Shown here: positions 3,541-43,269 of the stretch, one piece after another
Layout: every line of letters begins with the position of its first letter
Position numbering within the stretch: the stretch's first letter is position 1
DNA from: Peredibacter starrii
Lineage (GTDB): Bacteria > Bdellovibrionota > Bacteriovoracia > Bacteriovoracales > Bacteriovoracaceae
Reading direction: 5' to 3'
DNA: 64,000 bases
NCBI RefSeq assembly: GCF_034259205.1
Contig: NZ_CP139487.1
Location: forward strand, 744,001-808,000
Notes under the pieces: model-generated
Databases searched by the model: none
Told to the model about the DNA's origin: nothing
Seen by the model: only the letters and a program-made list of their open reading frames with translations
Position numbers and translations under genes: made by a program

Positions 3541-4381
3541 TATTTTTTAGCTGCAAGCTACCAATCAACAAAAACAAATATTTGTGTATCCAAAACTTGG
3601 CGTGAAATTTTCATCCAATGAAAAAAGGAGGGAAGGGAAAGTTCATGTTAAGCGCTCATCCAGTTCCATGTTAACGCGGACCCCTTGGTGTGACAGCACC
3701 AGGGGCTGTGGCAAAAGTCACAGTCTCACCCTTCCTGTTTTTTATTCTACGACATGTATTTCTCGAATGAAATGTCCAAAAGGTGCCAGGTTGCTTTCTC
3801 TGGAGGAAGTAAAAAATTCTCTCGGAGTCAGTTCTTATTTTTTAGACATACTTGTGTCTCTCAACAAAAACAAAAACTTGTGACTTTGAAACTTGGCCTG
3901 AATTTTTCATTAAAGGCAGAAGGAGGGAAGGGAAAGCTCATGTACCCCGCTGATTCAGTTCAATGCTACACGTTCCCCTTGGTGTTCCAGCACCTAGGGC
4001 CCCTGACAAACGCCACGGGTCTTACCCTTCCTTTTTACATTTTAACTTATTCTCTGAATGGAGCCTATGTCCAAAAGGTGCCAGGTTGCTTTCTCTGGAG
4101 GAAGTAAAAAGTTCTCTCAGAGGCAGTTCTTATTTTTAGACAGTAGTTGTGTCTCCAACAAAAACCAAAACTTGTGAATTTGAAATTTGGACTGAATTTT
4201 TCATTCAAGTCAGAAGGAGGGAAGGGAAAGCTCATGTTACTTGTTTATCCAGCTCATCGTTAACGTGGACCCCTTGGTGTTACAGCACCCTTGGTTCTGA
4301 AAAACTTCAGAATCTTGCCCTTCCTAATTTGTATTTTAACTCATTCTCTGAATGAAGCCTACGTCCAAAAGGTGCCAGGTT
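3541..4381. repeat. tandem array of ~295-bp structured repeat units (2.85 copies)
   Basis: Three head-to-tail units lie at 3541-3835, 3836-4130 and 4131-4381 (the last truncated). The anchor GGTGCCAGG occurs at 3782, 4077 and 4371, and GGAGGGAAGGG also recurs once per unit. Edges are conserved and the middle third is diverged. Each unit has two adjacent hairpins. Hairpin I has stem CCCCTTGGTG / CACC.AGGGG at 3681-3705 and its counterparts in units 2 and 3, with unit 3 weaker. Hairpin II (3706-3723, 4000-4019, 4295-4312) has a different stem sequence in each unit but keeps pairing and an AAAA/AAAC loop. The array ends directly at the RAYT transposase gene. Open frames inside it do not resemble proteins. 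Confidence 0.9.
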
Positions 4382-4385
4382 GATT

Positions 4386-5018
4386 ATGACTAGACCATTG
4401 ATTTTAAAGTCGGCAGTCCATCCCTATCACGTCTCTGCTCGTACACAGAGCGGGGACTTTTTCCCTATATCTTTAGATGAGGTTTGGGCGATCATGCTGG
4501 ATGAATTACAATGCGCTCGCAAAATCCACAATCTTTGCATTCATGCATTCGTATTGATGGGTAATCACTTTCATCTTCTCTGTCATACGCCCAACGAAAA
4601 CTTAGATCAAATTATGCATCAGTTTATGCGAAACACTTCTTTAAGAATCCGTCGTCAATCAAAGTCCTCTTTCCCATTGTGGGCAGGACGATACCGATGG
4701 AGCTTGATTGAGTCTCAAAATCATTACTACCAAGTGTATAAATATATTTATCGTAATCCTATCCGGGCCAAAATGGTTTCAAAGGTTGAGCACTATCCAT
4801 TTTCCACTTTGAAAGTCTCTTCATTTCCGATTCATTCCTACATTGCAATGTCATTCGCAGGAGAAGAAGGAGAACGTTTGTGGTTGAATGAGCCTTTTGA
4901 TAAAGAAGCCGAGGGCCTCATAAAGCTCGGCCTTAAGAAGCAGTACTTTGATGTTAATAAACGGAAATTAAAAATCTTCAACCGACTAACGGTCCCTAAT
5001 ATACCACCTCACGAGTAA
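4386..5018 (+). CDS. REP-associated tyrosine transposase (RAYT, Y1 / IS200-like)
   Basis: The 210-residue product from the ATG at 4386 starts MTRPLILKSAVHPYHV, as RAYT proteins do. A TTG two codons upstream is possible but less likely. The HUH metal motif is NHFHLLCH (His 61 and His 63). The tyrosine helix is YYQVYKYIYRNPIRA (Tyr 114-120). RAYTs are single-strand DNA nucleases that cut and move palindromic repeats next to their own gene. Here the gene follows unit 3 of the 295-bp array with no gap, which suggests that the array is its substrate. The 3' end overlaps the convergent downstream gene by 23 bp. The protein looks intact. Confidence 0.92.
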   Translation: MTRPLILKSAVHPYHVSARTQSGDFFPISLDEVWAIMLDELQCARKIHNLCIHAFVLMGNHFHLLCHTPNENLDQIMHQFMRNTSLRIRRQSKSSFPLWAGRYRWSLIESQNHYYQVYKYIYRNPIRAKMVSKVEHYPFSTLKVSSFPIHSYIAMSFAGEEGERLWLNEPFDKEAEGLIKLGLKKQYFDVNKRKLKIFNRLTVPNIPPHE

Positions 5019-5966: not shown

Positions 5967-7280
5967 ATGAAGCTAAGCATCATTGGCACTGGATATGTCG
6001 GTCTTGTAACAGGAACTTGTTTTGCAGAGATGGGTCACGATGTGACTTGTATCGATATCGACGCTGCGAAAGTTGAGCGCATGAAAAAAGGCGAGTGTCC
6101 AATTTATGAGCCGGGTCTAGAACCTCTAATGCAGTCAAACTACAAAGAGGGCCGCCTTCACTTTGCCAATAACTATGATTCAGTAACTAAAGCTGAAGCA
6201 ATTTTTCTAGCAGTAGGTACTCCATCATCTGATGATGGCCAAGCTGATCTTAAATATGTTTTTGGTGCTTGTGATTCAATCATTCCTTATCTTCAAGATG
6301 GTTCAATCGTTGTTGTGAAATCAACTGTACCAGTTGGAACAGGAAATAAAGTTCGCGAGTACATCAAAGGTAAGACTAATAAGAAATTCTACGTTGTGAA
6401 CAACCCTGAGTTCCTTAAAGAAGGTTCTGCGGTTGATGATTTCATGAAGCCAGAGCGTATCATCATCGGTGCTCAAGAAATTGAAGCAGCTCAAAGAATC
6501 GATGATCTTTATGAGCCATTCAATCGTCAGGTGAAGCGTACAATTCACATGAGTAACATTTCTGCAGAGATGACAAAATATGCAGCTAACTGTTTCCTTG
6601 CGACTAAGATCTCGTTCATGAACGAAGTTGCTCGTCTTTGTGACATTGTTGGTGCGGATGTTGAAGAAGTTCGTCACGGGATCTCAACTGACTCACGTAT
6701 CGGTTCTCAGTTCTTGTACCCAGGTCCTGGTTACGGCGGTTCTTGTTTTCCGAAAGATGTGAAAGCTTTGGTTTTCACAGCTAAAGAACATGGCGCTCGT
6801 TTCAAGATCGTTGAAGCTGTTGAAGAAGTGAACAAAGAGCAGAAGAAGTATCTTGTATCTAAAGTTAAGAAGCATTTCAAAGACGATCTTAAAGGCAAGA
6901 CTTTCGTTCTTTGGGGAACGGCTTTCAAAGCTAACACAGATGATATCCGTGAAACTCCAGCGATTGATACAGCGATTGCTCTTCACCAAGCTGGTGCTAA
7001 AGTTCGTTTCCATGATCCAGAAGCTGCCGATAACTTCGAGAAGCTTATGGGCCAGATGAATATTCCTGTAGATCAATTTGAAAACAAATACGACGCTCTA
7101 AACGGAGCTGATGGCCTTCTTATCATTACTGAGTGGAAGCAGTATCGTGCTCCGGATTTCGAAGAGATCAAATCACGTCTTAAGACGCCAATCATCTTCG
7201 ACGGAAGAAACCTGTACAATACGAAAAAAGTGTTGGAGATGGGATTCACATACTACGCAATTGGGAAGGCGATTAAGTAA
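5967..7280 (+). CDS. ugd: UDP-glucose 6-dehydrogenase
   Basis: The enzyme oxidises UDP-glucose to UDP-glucuronate with two NAD+, feeding capsule, exopolysaccharide or LPS synthesis. The 437-residue length is normal for bacterial Ugd. The Rossmann motif GTGYVGLVTG is at residues 7-16, the linking helix region is KYAANCFLATKISFMNE, and the catalytic cysteine lies in GYGGSCFPKDVKAL. The C-terminal UDP-binding domain contains WGTAFKANTDDIRETPA. Start at ATG 5967, with GGAG about 12 nt upstream. It fits the envelope-sugar genes around it (galE, glycosyltransferases, the O-antigen ligase-like gene). Confidence 0.96.
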   Translation: MKLSIIGTGYVGLVTGTCFAEMGHDVTCIDIDAAKVERMKKGECPIYEPGLEPLMQSNYKEGRLHFANNYDSVTKAEAIFLAVGTPSSDDGQADLKYVFGACDSIIPYLQDGSIVVVKSTVPVGTGNKVREYIKGKTNKKFYVVNNPEFLKEGSAVDDFMKPERIIIGAQEIEAAQRIDDLYEPFNRQVKRTIHMSNISAEMTKYAANCFLATKISFMNEVARLCDIVGADVEEVRHGISTDSRIGSQFLYPGPGYGGSCFPKDVKALVFTAKEHGARFKIVEAVEEVNKEQKKYLVSKVKKHFKDDLKGKTFVLWGTAFKANTDDIRETPAIDTAIALHQAGAKVRFHDPEAADNFEKLMGQMNIPVDQFENKYDALNGADGLLIITEWKQYRAPDFEEIKSRLKTPIIFDGRNLYNTKKVLEMGFTYYAIGKAIK

Positions 7281-8819
7281 TTAAAAAGGTGGAGTTTTCG
7301 AGTTACATGAAATAATCCAAGGGTATTGTTTAATATCTATATCAGTATATGATGTCGATATATGAATGTTTTTATAACCCCTAAGGAAAATTTTGTGAGA
7401 TTCGATCTCTCCTTTTATCCCATTAGATAGATCAGAGTCCACGTAGATAGGGATGTCAGAATCAAATTTTTCTGAGGAATTCAAAAAATCGTCGACTGTA
7501 CTAAAGGTTGCGAGATCTATTTGACTTCTCCTCGCTGCATTTTTCCATGCAAGTTGAAGAAATTTATCATCATCGATAAAAACAATTCTTTCCGGGTGAA
7601 ATACTCGAACCGGAATTTCAACAATGAATTCTGTACAATTAGGTTTAGAATCAAGGTAAAGATCTCCTCCAACTTGAAGAAGAAACGACTTAAGACTAGA
7701 TAATCCTATCCCGTTACCATTTTTTTTTGTTGTAAAACCTGGACTAAAGACTTTATTACGTATCGCTTCGGGGATTCCCTTACCATCATCTATTAGATGT
7801 AGGCGTAACCTATCTTCATCGTAATAAGAGGTTAATCTAATCTCTGTGGCCCCTGCCTCAGATGAATTCCTTCCTAAATTCATTAGTATATTTTTAAAAT
7901 CGAACTCACTAATTTCAATTTGAACTGAGTTCGGAATAATTATCAGGATTTTCAAATCGATTCCAAAAAGGGTGAGTAACTGCTCTTTAATATTAACAAG
8001 AGAATTTTGAACAGAGAATGTATCTAATTGGTTTTTGATCCCTAGAAGGCTATTAATATGGTAATCAATCTCACGGATACTTTTTTTAAGCTGAGATTGC
8101 GTTAGCTGTTGGCCCTCTGACATAATATTCAATGCGAGAATAGGATTTCTAATGTCATGTACTACTTTTTTAGCAAGTTTGAAGTAAGCTTCATTTTTTT
8201 CATACTGACGGATGTCCTCCTTCAGTTCGAAAAGTTTTTGGGAGATGAAGCTGAATTCATTTGGAGATTGGGTGTCGCTGCTTTCGGTAATTGATTTCTT
8301 TAACTCTTCTATTGGAGCAAGAAGATTTTTCCTGAAAAAAGATACTAGTACAAAGCATGTGAAAGCATAAAAAAATGCAGCTAGAAAAAATAGGTATTCT
8401 GCCTCAGCCTCTAAGAAATGATAAAATGAATAATGAAATCTATAAAATAGCAGAAGTTTCCTTGCGTTGATTGTAATTTCAATTTTTGAAAAAGACCTAT
8501 CAGAAAGTAAGCACAGATTCCTTGTAGTTGATAAGCTATTTGTGGAAATGAGGTCACAGTTTTTATCATACAACATCAATTCTTGGACCAAGGTCTTACG
8601 TTGTAAATCTCTTAATATAGAAGGATAATTTCTATCCAGAGTGTGATTGTTAAGTACATTCGTGCTAGCCTGAATACGGCGATGAATGTCCTCTGTCTTA
8701 CTTTTTTTGAAGAAGAAGTACGATGACCCTCCCATTAGAATAGTTAGAACAACAGCATATACAGCTGCTAGCTTGAAAATATGCAGATATGCTTTTCTGA
8801 ACAGAGACTTCGGTTTCAT
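7281..8819 (-). CDS. hybrid sensor histidine kinase with C-terminal receiver domain
   Basis: The 512-residue protein has membrane helices at about 12-36 and 139-161 that flank a periplasmic sensor domain of ~100 residues with no recognised family. The cytoplasmic part has the H box KKVVHDIRNP (His 221), N box ILMNLGRNSSEAG (Asn 314-318), G1 IDDGKGIP and G2 GNGIGLSS. From about 410 there is a receiver-like domain with acidic cluster IDDD (416-418), likely phospho-acceptor Asp 461 in IYVDSDLSNG, Thr/Ser at 488-490 and Lys 508 near the end. It is divergent from the peptide/SBP/YcaO genes, 67 bp away, and shares their AT-rich composition, so it may sense the peptide. No separate response regulator is nearby. 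Confidence 0.88.
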   Translation of the reverse strand: MKPKSLFRKAYLHIFKLAAVYAVVLTILMGGSSYFFFKKSKTEDIHRRIQASTNVLNNHTLDRNYPSILRDLQRKTLVQELMLYDKNCDLISTNSLSTTRNLCLLSDRSFSKIEITINARKLLLFYRFHYSFYHFLEAEAEYLFFLAAFFYAFTCFVLVSFFRKNLLAPIEELKKSITESSDTQSPNEFSFISQKLFELKEDIRQYEKNEAYFKLAKKVVHDIRNPILALNIMSEGQQLTQSQLKKSIREIDYHINSLLGIKNQLDTFSVQNSLVNIKEQLLTLFGIDLKILIIIPNSVQIEISEFDFKNILMNLGRNSSEAGATEIRLTSYYDEDRLRLHLIDDGKGIPEAIRNKVFSPGFTTKKNGNGIGLSSLKSFLLQVGGDLYLDSKPNCTEFIVEIPVRVFHPERIVFIDDDKFLQLAWKNAARRSQIDLATFSTVDDFLNSSEKFDSDIPIYVDSDLSNGIKGEIESHKIFLRGYKNIHISTSYTDIDIKQYPWIISCNSKTPPF

Positions 8820-8837
8820 ATAAAATCTTCACAAAAA

Positions 8838-8866
8838 TTGCATCGAATGGAATGATAGGCTAGATT
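8838..8866 (+). promoter_or_regulatory. possible sigma-70-type promoter for the peptide-YcaO operon
   Basis: A weak -35 (TTGCAT, 8838-8843) and -10 (TAGATT, 8861-8866) are separated by 17 bp, between the divergent kinase and the 53-aa peptide gene. Transcription would begin near 8873, right at the ribosome site AAGGAGAT, giving a very short leader. This is a low-confidence call because both boxes are poor matches. Confidence 0.25.
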
Positions 8867-8886
8867 TCGATGAAGGAGATACAAAC

Positions 8887-9048
8887 ATGAAAATTTTTAT
8901 CCTTAATATGCTTATTTTTTTTGGACTTTCGAAAGCTCAGGCTGGGGTTTCTCAGATTATCATAGAGTCAGTTGATCAATCTAAAGATGGAGTTAGTCCT
9001 GCCCAGTTCAAACCTGATTCGGATGGGACTGGATGCAGCCGCTGCTAG
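8887..9048 (+). CDS. 53-aa secreted-type peptide with CSRC terminus; candidate RiPP precursor or pheromone
   Basis: This short gene has a strong ribosome site (AAGGAGAT, 7 nt before the ATG). The product begins MKIFILNMLIFFGLSKAQA, a convincing Sec signal peptide with an AQA cleavage site, followed by a 34-residue hydrophilic part that ends SDGTGCSRC and then a stop. The only cysteines are residues 50 and 53, and Thr, Ser and Cys are the residues that YcaO enzymes cyclise. Its last 16 bp overlap the start of the peptide-binding lipoprotein gene, and YcaO follows, so the three are one transcription unit. Precursor or pheromone function is inferred from this context. No family is recognised. 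Confidence 0.7.
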   Translation: MKIFILNMLIFFGLSKAQAGVSQIIIESVDQSKDGVSPAQFKPDSDGTGCSRC

Positions 9049-10501
9049 TAATCTTAAGTTTTCTTATGTTTCTTATCGGCTGCTCAAAGGAAGTGAATGT
9101 GATTACTGTGTCTTTGAATCCACGAGAGGCCTTCAGTAGCCTGGATCCTATGGCCATACAATATACCAATGAATTCTATCTCTTAGAGAATTTAACTACA
9201 CGATTAGTTTCATTCGATGAAAATGGTGAATATCAGCTTGAGCTGGCTTCTAGTATTAATAAAATCAGCGAATACGAATACGACGTTAAAATAAGAAAGA
9301 CGTATTTTAGTAATGGTGACCTCGTAACTTTGAAAGATGTGAAACATTCTATTGAGCGATCATTGCAAGGAACTTCGCACACAAATCTGAAAGATTATAT
9401 AAGTGAGATCCTCTTATCTGAAGACAGCTTGAAAATAAAATTAAAAAAAGCCTCGAGATCATTTTTTTACTATCTTTCGCTCCCAGACTTAGGGATCCTT
9501 CATTCTAGTCAATATTCAAAAAAGACTCTTCTTGCCGCCGATTTTACTGCCATTTCATCCGGACCTTTTTATTACAAAATAGATGGAAGTAGTTTCAGTC
9601 TTTTGAAGAATAAGTATTATAATCTTGGAGTAGTTAATTATCCTGATGAGATTAGGTTAAGAAATCCTTTTAATGAAAATTCAATTTCACTCCTAAAGTC
9701 AGGGGATTAGACCTTGGACAGGTTAGTGTTAAGGACTTTTTGTCGGAACGGACATTGAACGAAAACTTACGTGTTATAGGGGTTCCTTCGGATTCATTAA
9801 CCTATTTGTATTTTAATGAGAATGCAAAAGGTTTCAAAGATGATAAGCACCGGCTATGGATTAAAAAATTAATACTTGAAAACTTCTCAGTACCTAAATC
9901 TCTCCATCAATTTGCTCGTCGGAGTGTTCAGTATTTTCCGCCAGAGTCAAAAGCATATATACCTGAAACACAGATTGACTCGATTGTAAGGTCTAATCTT
10001 CCAGCTAGTCCTCCAAAGGACTTCCCAAAAAAAGTTATTATCCATACGTATTCAACTGTTTATAACGTAACGATTGAAAATCTTGTTAGGCAACTTGAGA
10101 AGATACCTGATGTCAAAGTTGAAATTAAAAATGATATTAAACCTGCAGACTACATTAATAAAATGAAGTCTGGGGAATTCGAAATTTTCTTGAATGTCAT
10201 GTCAACGGACTTTCGGACCCCTGTTGAGGCAATTAATTTTGAATTTTTCTCTGCTGATTCTGTCCTTAGGGATAAAGATGGCAGCGTGAGTAGAAATTTT
10301 GAAAGATACCAAGCTGCACAAGATGGCATAGAGGAGATTAAAAGCCTTCAGGAGATTTCAAAGACAATCTTGTTAAGTGATCAGGTCATTCCATTGTTCC
10401 ATTCTGCTATCCCGTTTGTTTACAATTCAGACAAGGTCGATCTAAGTGATTTGAATCATCTATTCATTCTGAATTTTTGGAAGATCAAGAGTGGTAGATG
10501 A
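9033..10501 (+). pseudogene. peptide-binding ABC transporter lipoprotein (SBP_bac_5), one frameshift
   Basis: Two adjacent frames make one extracellular solute-binding protein of family 5 (DppA/OppA type). The first, from ATG 9033, begins MQPLLVILSFLMFLIGCS, a lipoprotein signal with lipobox LIGC, and includes LASSINKISEYEYDVKIRK, typical of the family, before a TAG at 9708. The second continues LDLGQVSVKDFLSERT up to 10501. Adding one T to GGGGATTAG near 9705-9709 would restore ...SGDLDLGQV..., so a single-base deletion or a sequencing error splits the gene. The total is about 489 residues, near family length. The 3' end overlaps YcaO by 4 bp (ATGA). No permease or ATPase genes are adjacent. 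Confidence 0.85.
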
Positions 10502-11484
10502 AACTGAAAAATCTTGTCGATGATTTAGTTCAGAAGCATAGCCTTAAATATTATTTTTATAATAAGGAAGCATTTTCAGATTTGTATCCCGCTGCATATT
10601 TGAAGATTGATTATAAAGGAAAAAGTTACGAAGCTTGGGGCGTTTCCAAAGGAGACAAAGATTTAGCTTTCTTTAAAGCATTGGTTGAATTGATTGAAAG
10701 AATAAGTATTTCTGAAACATGTGGATATTTTTTTAAAGAGAATCGTTTTTTTGGAGAAACTGTCACTTTAACTCAAATTTCTCAAAAGTTCGCTGTTGGA
10801 ACTAAGTTATTAAATTCTGACAATTCGAATGGAGCAGCTGTTCATCTTACTAAGTCGAAGGCAATAGAGTCAGGGCTCAACGAGCTGATTGAGAGGCATA
10901 CAATCTTGTCTGCTCTTTATCTTAATATCCCGCCTTTGCCCTATACTGGTAAGGTAATTTGCCTTAATGTTTTGGAGAAATATAAAATTAAATTCTACTA
11001 TTGGGGCTCAAACAATAGATATGTTGTAGTTGCTGTTCATCTATTGGATAACGGTGGTCTTCAATTCTCTCATGCGTGTTCCAAGAAATTAGATTCTGCT
11101 GTTTTGAAGTCATTTGAGGAGCTAACTCCAAATATAATATCGCAATTTGACAATCCCGTCGTTGTTAAGGATTTTGCTGTTAGAGAAGGAAGCATAAAGA
11201 GTTTTAATTTGTATTGGAAATATAGTGGAGATAGGCGGGTCCTTGATTTTTTTAATTCCAAGAGAGAGAGAGTTTCATCTCAAATTCCAGTGCTCAAAGA
11301 TATTTATTATTCAGAAATAAATATCTCAGAGGTATTTCAAAAGATAGGCTATCCCTTTTGTTGCCTTAAAGTTATATCCCCACAAGCTCAGCAGTTATTT
11401 TTTGATAATTGGAATGAAAAGTATATTCACCCAGATATTTATATCCCCGGACGTTTACCAGCTTTCCCTCACATTATTGCCTAG
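10498..11484 (+). CDS. YcaO-domain protein (stand-alone)
   Basis: YcaO enzymes use ATP to activate a peptide backbone amide, giving azolines, thioamides or amidines. The 328-residue product has the ATP/Mg-binding pattern: ALVELIERIS (Glu 64, Glu 67, Arg 68), then SNGAAVHLTKSKAIESG (110-126) and NELIERH (Glu 129, Glu 132, Arg 133). The C-terminus GRLPAFPHIIA is a variant of the proline-rich tail of azoline-forming members. No E1/ThiF-like partner, dehydrogenase or TfuA-like gene is next to it. It is translationally coupled to the solute-binding gene. The AT-rich codon use differs from the flanking glycosyltransferase and ugd, suggesting transfer. The family is fairly sure but the substrate is unknown. 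Confidence 0.88.
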   Translation: MKLKNLVDDLVQKHSLKYYFYNKEAFSDLYPAAYLKIDYKGKSYEAWGVSKGDKDLAFFKALVELIERISISETCGYFFKENRFFGETVTLTQISQKFAVGTKLLNSDNSNGAAVHLTKSKAIESGLNELIERHTILSALYLNIPPLPYTGKVICLNVLEKYKIKFYYWGSNNRYVVVAVHLLDNGGLQFSHACSKKLDSAVLKSFEELTPNIISQFDNPVVVKDFAVREGSIKSFNLYWKYSGDRRVLDFFNSKRERVSSQIPVLKDIYYSEINISEVFQKIGYPFCCLKVISPQAQQLFFDNWNEKYIHPDIYIPGRLPAFPHIIA

Positions 11485-11495
11485 CTGCTTCAATA

Positions 11496-12587
11496 CTAGC
11501 TACTAAAGATTTCTTCAAGACGATTCAAATTCACTTTCGAATCAAACTCTCTCTTCACTTTCCCAACACCATTCTCCACAACCGCCGCATTCGGATTACC
11601 ATTCTTAAAACTAGCTACAATCTTCGTCATAGCTTGAACATCAAAAGGCTTCACCAACCAGCCGGTCTTACCATCTTCAACGATCTCCGGATTTGAACTA
11701 ATGTCCCAACATACTGTCGGTAGACCATATTGGAGAGTTTCAATAAGTGTATTCGCCGAACCTTCATAAAGACTCGTGAACACAAACACTTCAAGTGAAT
11801 TAAAAAACGCCGGCATATCACTAACATGACCAAGAAGCTTCACTTGCTCCTGGAGCCCAGCTTCATCAATCATCTTCTGAAGATCTTTATGAAGTTCACC
11901 CTCACCAGCGATAAGAAGTTTGAAGTTCATGCCATCAGCTTTAAGAAGTTTCGCCATCTCAATCAAATATTTCTGACCTTTCTGTTCTGTCAGACGTCCA
12001 GCATTTCCAATAACAACTTCATTACCTTTCTTCTCATAAAGCTTCTTACTCTTATCAACTTCCTTCGAGGTATCCACACCATTATAGATCAGAACCATTT
12101 TATTCTCAGGAAACCAAGACTCGTTACCTTGTTTAAGACTGCGACCAATTTCCTTCGAATTCACCACAACGTGAGTCAGCACATTCGTGAACAAGAAACG
12201 GTTAAGCCACGTATTTCGAAGTGGGTGAGGCATCCCACGGCGATAAATGATTTTCTTAACACCTGCAATTCTAGCAGCTAGGCCAGCAAGCTTTAAATCC
12301 GCCGGTAAGTTAAGCACAATTGCATCCACGCCTTTAACTTTGAAGAAAACAGCCAGTGTTAAAACCTTAACTGGGTTTAAGAAGCTTAGATTTCCTACAT
12401 GAAAACGAAACACATCCAGACTTTCACGCACACCTTTATTCCCAAGTTCCGAACGCATGTTCGTAAGAAGGAGAACCTTGTTACCTCTGCGAATGAATTC
12501 CTTGGCCGTCGTGAAGTGCCACTTCTCTCCGCCTCCCCAGGCCTTGTTAGAGTTAAAGAAGCAAACAGTCTTTGTCGGAGTCGTCAT
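11496..12587 (-). CDS. glycosyltransferase family 4
   Basis: The 363-residue protein begins TKTVCFFNSNKAWGGGEKWH, the acceptor-side glycine-rich loop of GT4 retaining transferases. The donor-side domain contains VVIGNAGRLTEQKGQKYLIE and the EX7E motif region FTSLYEGSANTLIETLQYG, both diagnostic for the Glycos_transf_1 domain. It probably adds a sugar to LPS or another surface glycan at the cytoplasmic membrane face. It is convergent with the YcaO gene, with 11 bp between them. The donor sugar cannot be told. Confidence 0.92.
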   Translation of the reverse strand: MTTPTKTVCFFNSNKAWGGGEKWHFTTAKEFIRRGNKVLLLTNMRSELGNKGVRESLDVFRFHVGNLSFLNPVKVLTLAVFFKVKGVDAIVLNLPADLKLAGLAARIAGVKKIIYRRGMPHPLRNTWLNRFLFTNVLTHVVVNSKEIGRSLKQGNESWFPENKMVLIYNGVDTSKEVDKSKKLYEKKGNEVVIGNAGRLTEQKGQKYLIEMAKLLKADGMNFKLLIAGEGELHKDLQKMIDEAGLQEQVKLLGHVSDMPAFFNSLEVFVFTSLYEGSANTLIETLQYGLPTVCWDISSNPEIVEDGKTGWLVKPFDVQAMTKIVASFKNGNPNAAVVENGVGKVKREFDSKVNLNRLEEIFSS

Positions 12588-41935: not shown

Positions 41936-42017
<82 letters not shown>

Positions 42018-42061
42018 TTCAAATACATACACCAGATACAGAGACCACCAGTTACCCTCGG

Positions 42062-42078
42062 GCGTGAATTGGGCGTGA
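42062..42078 (+). promoter_or_regulatory. putative integrase arm-type site, left
   Basis: GCGTGAATTGGGCGTGA, a near direct duplication of GCGTGA, lies 44 bp inside attL. The identical 17 bp occurs in the same orientation at 56502-56518, near attR, and nowhere else that I noticed. Such shared sites near both ends are expected for arm-binding by a lambda-type integrase. Confidence 0.5.
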
Positions 42079-42090
42079 ATCCTTTTTCCA

Positions 42091-43269
42091 TCATACAGAT
42101 GCCACCGCATAGTCCTTACCCCTTTCGGACATTAGGGGAGGATAAGTCACGTCCAGATTTCTAGAAAAACTGTTCACCGAGAGCACATCAGCTCGTTTAC
42201 CAATGTTGGGCTGAATAATATCTCTCACTTCTTGAAGATACTCATTACTTAGGTGAGCATATTTTTCCGTCGTCTTGATGTCGACATGACCCAGAACTTT
42301 TTTTAGGTCGTAAAGATTCCCGCCATTCATCATAAATAGACTGGCATAGGTGTGACGAGCATCATGGATACGGATACGGCGTACTTCACATGCTTCAAAA
42401 GTCATGGCCCAAGTTCTGCTTCTAAAGTTGTTAGCATCAATTGGACGTCCAGTTACATTGCTAAAAATGAATGAACCGTTGGCAGAATTTTTAAGTGCTG
42501 CCAATTCAACTTTCAGTAGTGAGGGAAGGGGAACCGTTCGATCTTTTTTTCCTTTGGTTGTTCCTAAGAGTTTATGTTCTTTAGAGCACCAAGAGTCCGA
42601 AACGAGTATTCGATCCCGATCAAAGTAGATTTTATGCCATTCAAGTCCAAGCACTTCACCAAGTCTCATTCCTGTGAGGAAGAGAGTTAAGTAAAAGACG
42701 TGAATCCATCGCTCCTCACCAACAAATCTCTGATTAGTATAAGTTAAGATCTGATCCAGTTCATCGTGTTCAAGGAAATCCATTTCTTTGTTGTCGAGCT
42801 TTAGCTGTTTAAAGCTACGGCTTGGATTTCTAGCAATGTAATCATTGTTAAAGGAATGATTAAATACGGCCTTGAAGTGTTGAATAACCTTGTTCACGGT
42901 CGATTTTGAAAGCCCCTTCTTTATCTTCCCTGTAACAATCTTCTCAAAGTGCATAGAATTGATTTCGCTGATCCTAAGACCACTTAAAATCGGAGCGATA
43001 TACTGCTTATGCATTTGAACATCTTTTACGAGGGATGATTCTCTTTTTCTTGTTGAAGCATTCACATGCCAAAACTCAAAGATCTCATCGTACAGGTAAT
43101 CTTTTGCCTGACTACCTGTGAGCGCTTGAGTTTCAATCTGGGTGAGAGTGTCTCGTTCAAATTTGATTGCTTGGGCTTTTAAAGGGAAAGACTTGGTTAA
43201 GTGTCTTTTACCTTTATACCAAACTTCAACCTTCCATTTACCAGTCTTTTTGTTTTGTTGGATCGCCAT
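42091..43269 (-). CDS. int: tyrosine recombinase / integrase
   Basis: The 392-residue phage-type integrase has an N-terminal arm-binding domain (MAIQQNKKTGKWKVEVWYKG), a SAM-like core-binding domain (~60-160) and the catalytic domain with Arg 202 (LTGMRLGEVLG), Lys near 241, His 302 and Arg 305 (IHDARHTYAS), His 328 (VLGHVD) and nucleophile Tyr 337 (TTEKYAHLS). It lies 73 bp from attL, pointing toward it, as in many tRNA-integrated elements. The excisionase is 3 bp upstream. Confidence 0.96.
   Translation of the reverse strand: MAIQQNKKTGKWKVEVWYKGKRHLTKSFPLKAQAIKFERDTLTQIETQALTGSQAKDYLYDEIFEFWHVNASTRKRESSLVKDVQMHKQYIAPILSGLRISEINSMHFEKIVTGKIKKGLSKSTVNKVIQHFKAVFNHSFNNDYIARNPSRSFKQLKLDNKEMDFLEHDELDQILTYTNQRFVGEERWIHVFYLTLFLTGMRLGEVLGLEWHKIYFDRDRILVSDSWCSKEHKLLGTTKGKKDRTVPLPSLLKVELAALKNSANGSFIFSNVTGRPIDANNFRSRTWAMTFEACEVRRIRIHDARHTYASLFMMNGGNLYDLKKVLGHVDIKTTEKYAHLSNEYLQEVRDIIQPNIGKRADVLSVNSFSRNLDVTYPPLMSERGKDYAVASV

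What the first reader, a model, noticed from the sequence alone, without database searches (positions are those of the whole stretch)
8819..11484. RiPP-like cassette: hybrid kinase, CSRC peptide, peptide-binding lipoprotein and stand-alone YcaO
Seen: three overlapping plus-strand genes (16-bp and 4-bp overlaps) encode a 53-aa peptide with a Sec signal and a CSRC tail, an SBP_bac_5 lipoprotein and a YcaO enzyme. A hybrid histidine kinase is divergent 67 bp away. All are AT-rich compared with ugd and the glycosyltransferase beside them. Known: YcaO enzymes modify Cys/Ser/Thr or backbone amides in RiPPs; SBP_bac_5 proteins bind extracellular peptides. Inference: a modified secreted peptide that is sensed or recaptured by the same locus. 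I know of no described family with this set, and no E1-like partner, dehydrogenase or exporter is next to it.
Basis: partly seen in the sequence, partly recalled or inferred. Interest (0 to 1): 0.88.

Follow-up and report, generated by a model that had tools for sequence, protein, structure and literature searches.

The report
Self-made peptide signal sensing cassette
This locus is one copy, with its binding-protein gene broken by a frameshift, of a widespread but apparently undescribed gene cassette in predatory Bdellovibrionota that seems to make, chemically modify, export and then sense its own small cysteine-tailed peptide, and that often rides on conjugative DNA elements.

Summary
It is split by a one-base frameshift at about 9700-9712; relatives L009 and L010 have it whole. 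In 61 loci of 51 Bdellovibrionota genomes (window included) a stand-alone YcaO sits beside an SBP_bac_5 gene, almost always with a histidine kinase. Directly upstream of 52 of 61 SBP genes lies a signal-peptide ORF (control genes 38/420); 36 of these end in a Cys-containing tail (control 12/420). Precursors form a family detectable across taxonomic families; one has two tandem core repeats (DTQPCxxC), a RiPP hallmark. A sigma-54 response regulator accompanies 24 loci; conjugation gene traC lies within 20 kb of 21 of 44 YcaO genes (1.5 expected). The window's chromosomal slot (ugd|glycosyltransferase) is empty in some congeners; in five others it holds different enzyme + kinase cassettes sharing the same receiver domain. 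Best reading: exchangeable peptide-pheromone modules, in which YcaO modifies the peptide, Sec exports it, and SBP plus kinase sense it. Chemistry and ligand are inferred, not shown.

The parts
7281..8819 (-). Hybrid histidine kinase, 512 aa: 2 TM segments, ~113-aa periplasmic sensor region with two Cys (C88, C103, invariant in 4 orthologues), HisKA/HATPase_c, C-terminal receiver
7284..7607 (-). Receiver domain of the kinase; 28-45% identical to receivers of non-YcaO cassettes in the same chromosomal slot of congeners
8887..9048 (+). Putative RiPP precursor, 53 aa: signal peptide plus ~33 aa ending GTGCSRC; conserved G-C-x-x-C tail in L009 and L010
9034..9045 (+). Codons of the CSRC tail, the putative modified core
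   Evidence: sequence; overlaps the SBP start at 9033
9033..9710 (+). N-terminal half of a frameshifted SBP_bac_5 lipoprotein gene (profile positions 2-162)
9700..9712 (+). Frameshift junction (one base missing against intact homologues)
9740..10501 (+). C-terminal half of the SBP_bac_5 gene (profile positions 186-358)
10498..11484 (+). Stand-alone YcaO, 328 aa, ATP-binding Glu/Arg residues E64, E67, R68, E129, E132, R133 and E208 conserved
5967..7280 (+). ugd, left border of the exchange slot (not part of the cassette)
11496..12587 (-). Glycosyltransferase, right border of the exchange slot (not part of the cassette)

Best explanation
The locus is one copy of a peptide-signalling module widespread in Bdellovibrionota. 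Step 1 (inferred): the small precursor is made in the cytoplasm and the stand-alone YcaO uses ATP to modify its Cys/Gly/Thr-rich C-terminal end, for example to a thiazoline, thioamide or amidine; the exact chemistry is unknown. Step 2 (inferred from sequence): the N-terminal signal peptide sends it out through Sec. Step 3 (inferred): the membrane- or lipid-anchored SBP_bac_5 protein binds the mature peptide. Step 4 (inferred): the loaded SBP, or the peptide itself, is sensed by the periplasmic domain of the linked histidine kinase, whose own receiver or a linked sigma-54 response regulator passes the signal on. The module moves as a unit, sits on conjugative elements in many relatives (where it probably times transfer), and at the ugd|GT slot is exchanged with other enzyme + kinase + receiver cassettes. 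In the window genome the SBP is frameshifted, so this copy is probably impaired unless the frameshift is a sequencing error. Shown here: gene linkage, co-inheritance, precursor family with conserved Cys tail, catalytic residues, slot exchange, conjugation linkage. Not shown: modification, export, binding, signalling.
For: 61 loci in 51 genomes with YcaO next to SBP_bac_5, 54 with a kinase within 300 bp, and correlated distances (r 0.80/0.64/0.63, best of 2000 permutations 0.27). A signal-peptide ORF lies directly before 52/61 SBP genes against 38/420 control genes, with a terminal Cys in 36 against 12; Cys is 5.3% of the last 18 residues against 0.8% of the middle. A precursor HMM trained on one taxonomic family finds precursors at the expected place elsewhere (E 1e-7 to 1e-2; all 11 hits in 3854 ORFs are at that place, two of them in a further locus of the training family or a second paralogue). 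L127 has two tandem cores, DTQPCEVC / DTQPCVGC, and L118 has two precursor paralogues. The precursor precedes the SBP even where YcaO is moved upstream (L076, L135, L145). YcaO ATP residues are conserved in the aligned members. An NtrC-type regulator is linked in 24 loci. TraC lies within 20 kb of 21/44 YcaO genes against 1.5 expected, with pilin, TraL and TraC beside the cassette in L135 and L138. In the same slot congeners carry other enzyme + kinase cassettes with a homologous receiver. No ABC permease recurs, so uptake is not the obvious role of the SBP.
Against: No product, binding or signalling data. The window SBP is broken. 15 of 52 called precursors lack a Cys in the last 18 residues, and one subfamily ends SDGSKTEKASK. 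Signal peptides were judged by hydrophobicity only. Sec-exported YcaO substrates have no proven precedent that I found. The slot also holds non-signalling cargo in some genomes (L011, L158). The window genome has no TraC_F_IV.
Confidence: 0.55

Rival explanations
1. The window copy is a decaying relic: a one-base deletion has inactivated the SBP, and the remaining genes persist only because the loss is recent. (This concerns the window copy, not the family, and is compatible with the best explanation.)
For: Split SBP in the window, intact in L009 and L010; isolated lesion in an otherwise intact window; single copy in the genome.
Against: YcaO, kinase and peptide frames are all intact. A single-base error beside a GGGG run in a one-contig assembly would look the same.
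Confidence: 0.55
2. A metal system: the CxxC peptide, after YcaO modification, binds a metal like methanobactin or a bufferin; the SBP binds the metal-peptide complex and the kinase senses metal status.
For: CxxC tails in the window clade (CSRC, CGTC, CSGC, CRDC, CEVC/CVGC). SBP_bac_5 includes nickel binders (NikA among PDB and NCBIfam hits). Sec signals are known in bufferin precursors (PMC12452194).
Against: Most precursors have one terminal Cys in a (G/S)(S/T)IC-like end or none; no TonB receptor, permease or metal gene recurs; linkage to conjugation and to non-metal slot-mates is unexplained.
Confidence: 0.12
3. A sensor of foreign (for example prey) peptides: SBP and kinase detect outside peptides; the YcaO modifies another protein and the small ORF is an accessory secreted protein.
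For: SBP_bac_5 proteins bind peptides; these bacteria are predators; SBP-kinase pairs that sense nutrients are known (PMC11113362, seen).
Against: The small gene with conserved Cys tail is almost as constant as the SBP (52/61); core repeats in L127; the slot is swapped for other enzyme-plus-kinase sets, which fits self-made signals.
Confidence: 0.12
4. A bacteriocin or element-competition system: the modified peptide inhibits cells lacking the element, and SBP/kinase give immunity or regulation.
For: YcaO products are often antibiotics; linkage to conjugative elements; many divergent paralogues.
Against: No dedicated ABC exporter, protease or immunity gene recurs; a regulator and kinase are the constant neighbours; very short, variable tails.
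Confidence: 0.1
5. The YcaO does not build a heterocycle or thioamide but cuts the precursor as an ATP-dependent peptidase, as reported for MusD.
For: MusD (7u58) is among the closest solved relatives.
Against: Closer relatives are the archaeal McrA-thioamidating YcaOs (6pe3, 6ci7); a Cys-focused core suggests Cys or backbone chemistry.
Confidence: 0.07

Closest known systems
Stand-alone YcaO enzymes (MJ1094 / M. kandleri YcaO, McrA glycine thioamidation; streptamidine and bottromycin YcaOs)
   Same: Single-domain YcaO fold, conserved ATP Glu residues; best sequence match 6pe3 (E 2e-20), best fold match 6ci7
   Different: ~320 aa, 12-17% identity in the fold alignment; linked to secreted precursor, SBP and kinase; no NCBIfam YcaO model reaches its cut-off for the window protein
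Bufferins / MNIO RiPPs (PMC12452194)
   Same: RiPP-like precursor with Sec signal peptide and Cys motifs
   Different: Enzyme is YcaO, no MNIO or DUF2063 partner seen; kinase and SBP linked instead
Gram-positive peptide quorum sensing (agr, ComQXPA; from general knowledge)
   Same: Precursor, modifying enzyme, histidine kinase and regulator in one exchangeable locus
   Different: YcaO chemistry, Sec export, SBP_bac_5 receptor, Gram-negative hosts
Enterococcal pheromone-responsive plasmids (PrgZ/TraC; PMC7117660)
   Same: SBP-type peptide receptor encoded on a conjugative element with a small peptide
   Different: PrgZ feeds an Opp importer; here a kinase and sigma-54 regulator replace import, and the peptide has a dedicated modifying enzyme
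Ralstonia PhcB/PhcS (PMC8578825)
   Same: Enzyme plus kinase signalling module; slot-mates L150-L154 have methyltransferase-like, hydrolase or acyltransferase-like enzymes with kinase and receiver
   Different: No homology test made; the window cassette uses a peptide and YcaO
SBP-dependent sensor kinases (AgtS, AruS; PMC11113362)
   Same: SBP gene adjacent to its kinase
   Different: There the ligand is a nutrient; here a peptide made by the same operon is proposed

Membership tests
YcaO superfamily (PF02624) | HMM score above Pfam cut-off | tested here: met
   37.2 against 25.7 bits
YcaO superfamily (PF02624) | Conserved Glu/Arg ATP-Mg site | tested here: met
   E64, E67, R68, E129, E132, R133 in 45/45; E208 in 43/45; align with MJ1094
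TOMM / LAP cyclodehydratase (TIGR03604) | Score above the SagD model cut-off (219 bits) | tested here: not met
   22.6 bits
TOMM / LAP cyclodehydratase (TIGR03604) | E1-like/ocin-ThiF partner and dehydrogenase | tested here: not met
   Only SBP, kinase, regulator and precursor recur at scale in neighbour clustering; no specific HMM for each partner was run
Thioamitide / TfuA-dependent YcaO | TfuA gene adjacent | tested here: inconclusive
   No such recurrent neighbour, and no room for one in the window cassette; no TfuA HMM run
RiPP (general) | Small precursor gene beside the enzyme with conserved core-like tail | tested here: met
   52/61 loci, Cys-tail enrichment, core repeats in L127
RiPP (general) | Enzyme-modified peptide product | not testable with these tools
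   Needs mass spectrometry
Bufferin / methanobactin | MNIO (DUF692) enzyme | tested here: not met
   No MNIO in the window cassette; YcaO in its place; no such recurrent neighbour
SBP_bac_5 (PF00496) | Full-length domain in one open frame | tested here: not met
   Window gene split; met in L009 (50.8 bits), and 31 of 34 relatives match the family
Peptide-pheromone two-component system | Precursor, kinase and regulator linked | tested here: met
   Kinase within 300 bp in 54 loci, NtrC-type regulator in 24 loci; window kinase is hybrid, no separate regulator beside it
Peptide-pheromone two-component system | Mature peptide activates the kinase | not testable with these tools
   Needs a reporter or phosphorylation assay
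Pheromone-controlled conjugative element | Module located with conjugation genes | tested here: not met
   Not met for the window: its genome has no TraC_F_IV. Met for relatives: 21/44 YcaO genes within 20 kb of TraC, 13 of them modules read in full

The most novel reading that the evidence does not exclude
Bdellovibrionota use a family of YcaO-modified, Sec-exported peptides as pheromones, received by an SBP plus a histidine kinase and, on conjugative elements, controlling transfer; the signal-plus-receptor cassette is swapped at a fixed chromosomal slot, changing the 'language' of a strain while keeping the output receiver.
Probability: 0.35. Interest if true: 0.92.

Novelty: new variant of a known kind. 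Interest (0 to 1): 0.82.

Why it matters
If true, it is a large uncharted family of Gram-negative modified peptide signals with its receptor encoded beside it, in predatory bacteria for which I found no described peptide pheromone. It would give YcaO enzymes a signalling role with substrates exported by Sec, and would make peptide control of conjugation in this phylum directly testable in cultured Bdellovibrio (L114-L116 come from single-contig genomes, one of the size I recall for B. exovorus JSS; that identity is from memory).

Tried and rejected
A single-sequence scan of genome contigs found nothing; an alignment scan returned only the same four relatives plus a distant Micrarchaeota YcaO. 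Plasmid tblastn with a relative's YcaO: no match. Programmed frameshifting in the SBP: rejected, as relatives are unbroken and GGGGATTAG is no classical slippery heptamer. A -24/-12 (sigma-54) promoter before precursors: 5/51 against about 1 expected, none in the window; weak, not used. Ordinary peptide uptake: no permease recurs. E. coli-type YcaO: the two other YcaOs of the genome look like that type, this one does not. NCBIfam matches of the precursors were chance-level. Distribution outside the phylum was not testable beyond. Literature: none of the 10 searches turned up this gene set; the library holds open-access papers only.
Full report
OBSERVATION. The N half (9033-9710) matches SBP_bac_5 positions 2-162 and the C half (9740-10501) positions 186-358. 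The reading changes by -1 at TCAGGGGATTAGACC. Homologues L009 and L010 run through without a break. The remaining window has long intact genes, so this is one isolated lesion or one sequence error.

CLOSE RELATIVES. A protein search of 98 related genomes found four homologues besides the window's own. L009 and L010 have the same divergent kinase, a small secreted peptide overlapping the SBP start, an intact SBP and YcaO. L011 is cut by the contig end after YcaO and part of the SBP. L012 is a diverged variant with the kinase downstream and a 127-aa secreted peptide. The peptides of window, L009 and L010 share the signal region and a terminal G-C-x-x-C.

PHYLUM-WIDE FAMILY. A profile of the YcaOs matched 31 of 129 genomes of the family, and a wider profile 185 of 369 genomes of the phylum at E <= 1e-3 (weak hits will include other YcaO types). 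I read about 80 neighbourhoods. In 61 loci from 51 genomes, window included, an SBP_bac_5 gene adjoins the YcaO. The kinase is usually next in line; 54 loci have it within 300 bp. Distances between loci computed from YcaO, SBP and kinase correlate at 0.80, 0.64 and 0.63, against a maximum of 0.27 in 2000 permutations. The only other recurrent neighbour at scale is an NtrC-type response regulator, in 24 loci. No permease, exporter, protease or E1-like protein recurs.

PRECURSORS. Directly upstream of the SBP lies a 45-215 aa ORF with a basic N-terminus and hydrophobic core in 52 of 61 cases; other genes in the same loci have one in 38 of 420. A Cys in the last 18 residues is found in 36 against 12. 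In the precursors Cys makes up 5.3% of the last 18 residues and 0.8% of the middle. A large subfamily shares 'SIxxxLxxxGxL...(G/S)(S/T)IC'. A profile trained only on Bacteriovoracaceae precursors finds those of other families at the right place. In the window's clade (SBP tree) the tails are CSRC, CGTC, CSGC, CRDC, and in L127 two tandem cores DTQPCEVC and DTQPCVGC; the window itself is not in that tree because its SBP is split, and is placed by its YcaO and kinase. Where YcaO lies upstream of the SBP, the precursor stays next to the SBP (L076, L135, L145). Signal peptides were judged by hydrophobicity only; no signal-peptide predictor was available.

ENZYME. The window YcaO model is confident (pLDDT 88, pTM 0.90) and its fold is nearest to archaeal single-domain YcaOs. 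By sequence the family is nearest MJ1094, which is of the McrA-thioamidating type. The Glu/Arg ATP residues are kept. Which bond is made cannot be read from sequence.

RECEIVER SIDE. The kinases have two membrane segments and an ~80-120 aa periplasmic domain without a Pfam match. The window kinase model shows a receiver at the C-terminus. Many SBPs carry a lipobox or an N-terminal hydrophobic segment, which would place them at a membrane near the kinase.

MOBILITY. TraC of F-type conjugation lies within 20 kb of 21 of 44 YcaO genes in TraC-bearing genomes; random placement predicts 1.5. Thirteen of the 21 are modules I read in full; the others were not opened. In L138 the order is regulator, precursor, SBP, YcaO, kinase, then pilin- and TraL-like genes, with TraC in the same contig 4.5 kb from YcaO; L135 has conjugation genes, the module and a serine-recombinase-like gene. 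The SBP tree mixes taxonomic families, and conjugation-linked modules occur on several deep branches. The window genome itself has no TraC_F_IV.

THE SLOT. In the window and in L010 (another genus) the cassette sits between ugd and a glycosyltransferase. In G024, G002, G020 and G025 the two genes are adjacent. In G003, G012, G006, G013 and G009 the slot holds other cassettes: a methyltransferase-like protein and hydrolase with a hybrid kinase (L150, L151); an SBP_bac_5, kinase, hydrolase, methyltransferase-like protein and separate receiver (L153, L154); a hydrolase, hexapeptide transferase, kinase and receiver (L152). Their receivers are 28-45% identical to that of the window kinase. L011 and L158 have non-signalling cargo there. 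Different enzymes with a shared output receiver in one slot is what exchangeable signalling alleles would look like; this is inference.

CONCLUSION. The family is real and coherent. The most economical function is self-made peptide signalling, with control of conjugation in element-borne copies. Modification, export, binding and response remain untested, and the window copy may be inactive.

Noticed in passing
window 41936-43269: tRNA-Met followed by an integrase-like ORF (42091-43269), suggesting a genomic island starting there.
   Followed up: no
L080 6033-7439, L081 6000-7332: Another stand-alone YcaO with a 117-137 aa precursor-like ORF without signal peptide ending GFTTLTATNxSSYCDxS; no SBP or kinase.
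   Followed up: no
L050 5055-7614, L052, L053: YcaO preceded by a B12-binding radical SAM protein, a different YcaO cluster.
   Followed up: partly
L057, L061, L070: YcaO with an upstream GNAT-like protein (GNAT domain confirmed for L057) and no SBP.
   Followed up: partly
L150-L154: Non-YcaO enzyme + histidine kinase + receiver cassettes (ICMT/PEMT-like methyltransferase, hydrolase, hexapeptide transferase) in the ugd|GT slot; possible small-molecule signalling modules.
   Followed up: partly
L116 9697-13063: Long array of short repeats beside the module in a 2,657,893-bp single-contig genome, probably CRISPR.
   Followed up: no
L118 8914-9692: Two tandem precursor paralogues before one SBP.
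   Followed up: no
window 4380-5018: IS200-like (Y1_Tnp) transposase near the slot, relatives also near the modules L010, L011, L059, L068.
   Followed up: no
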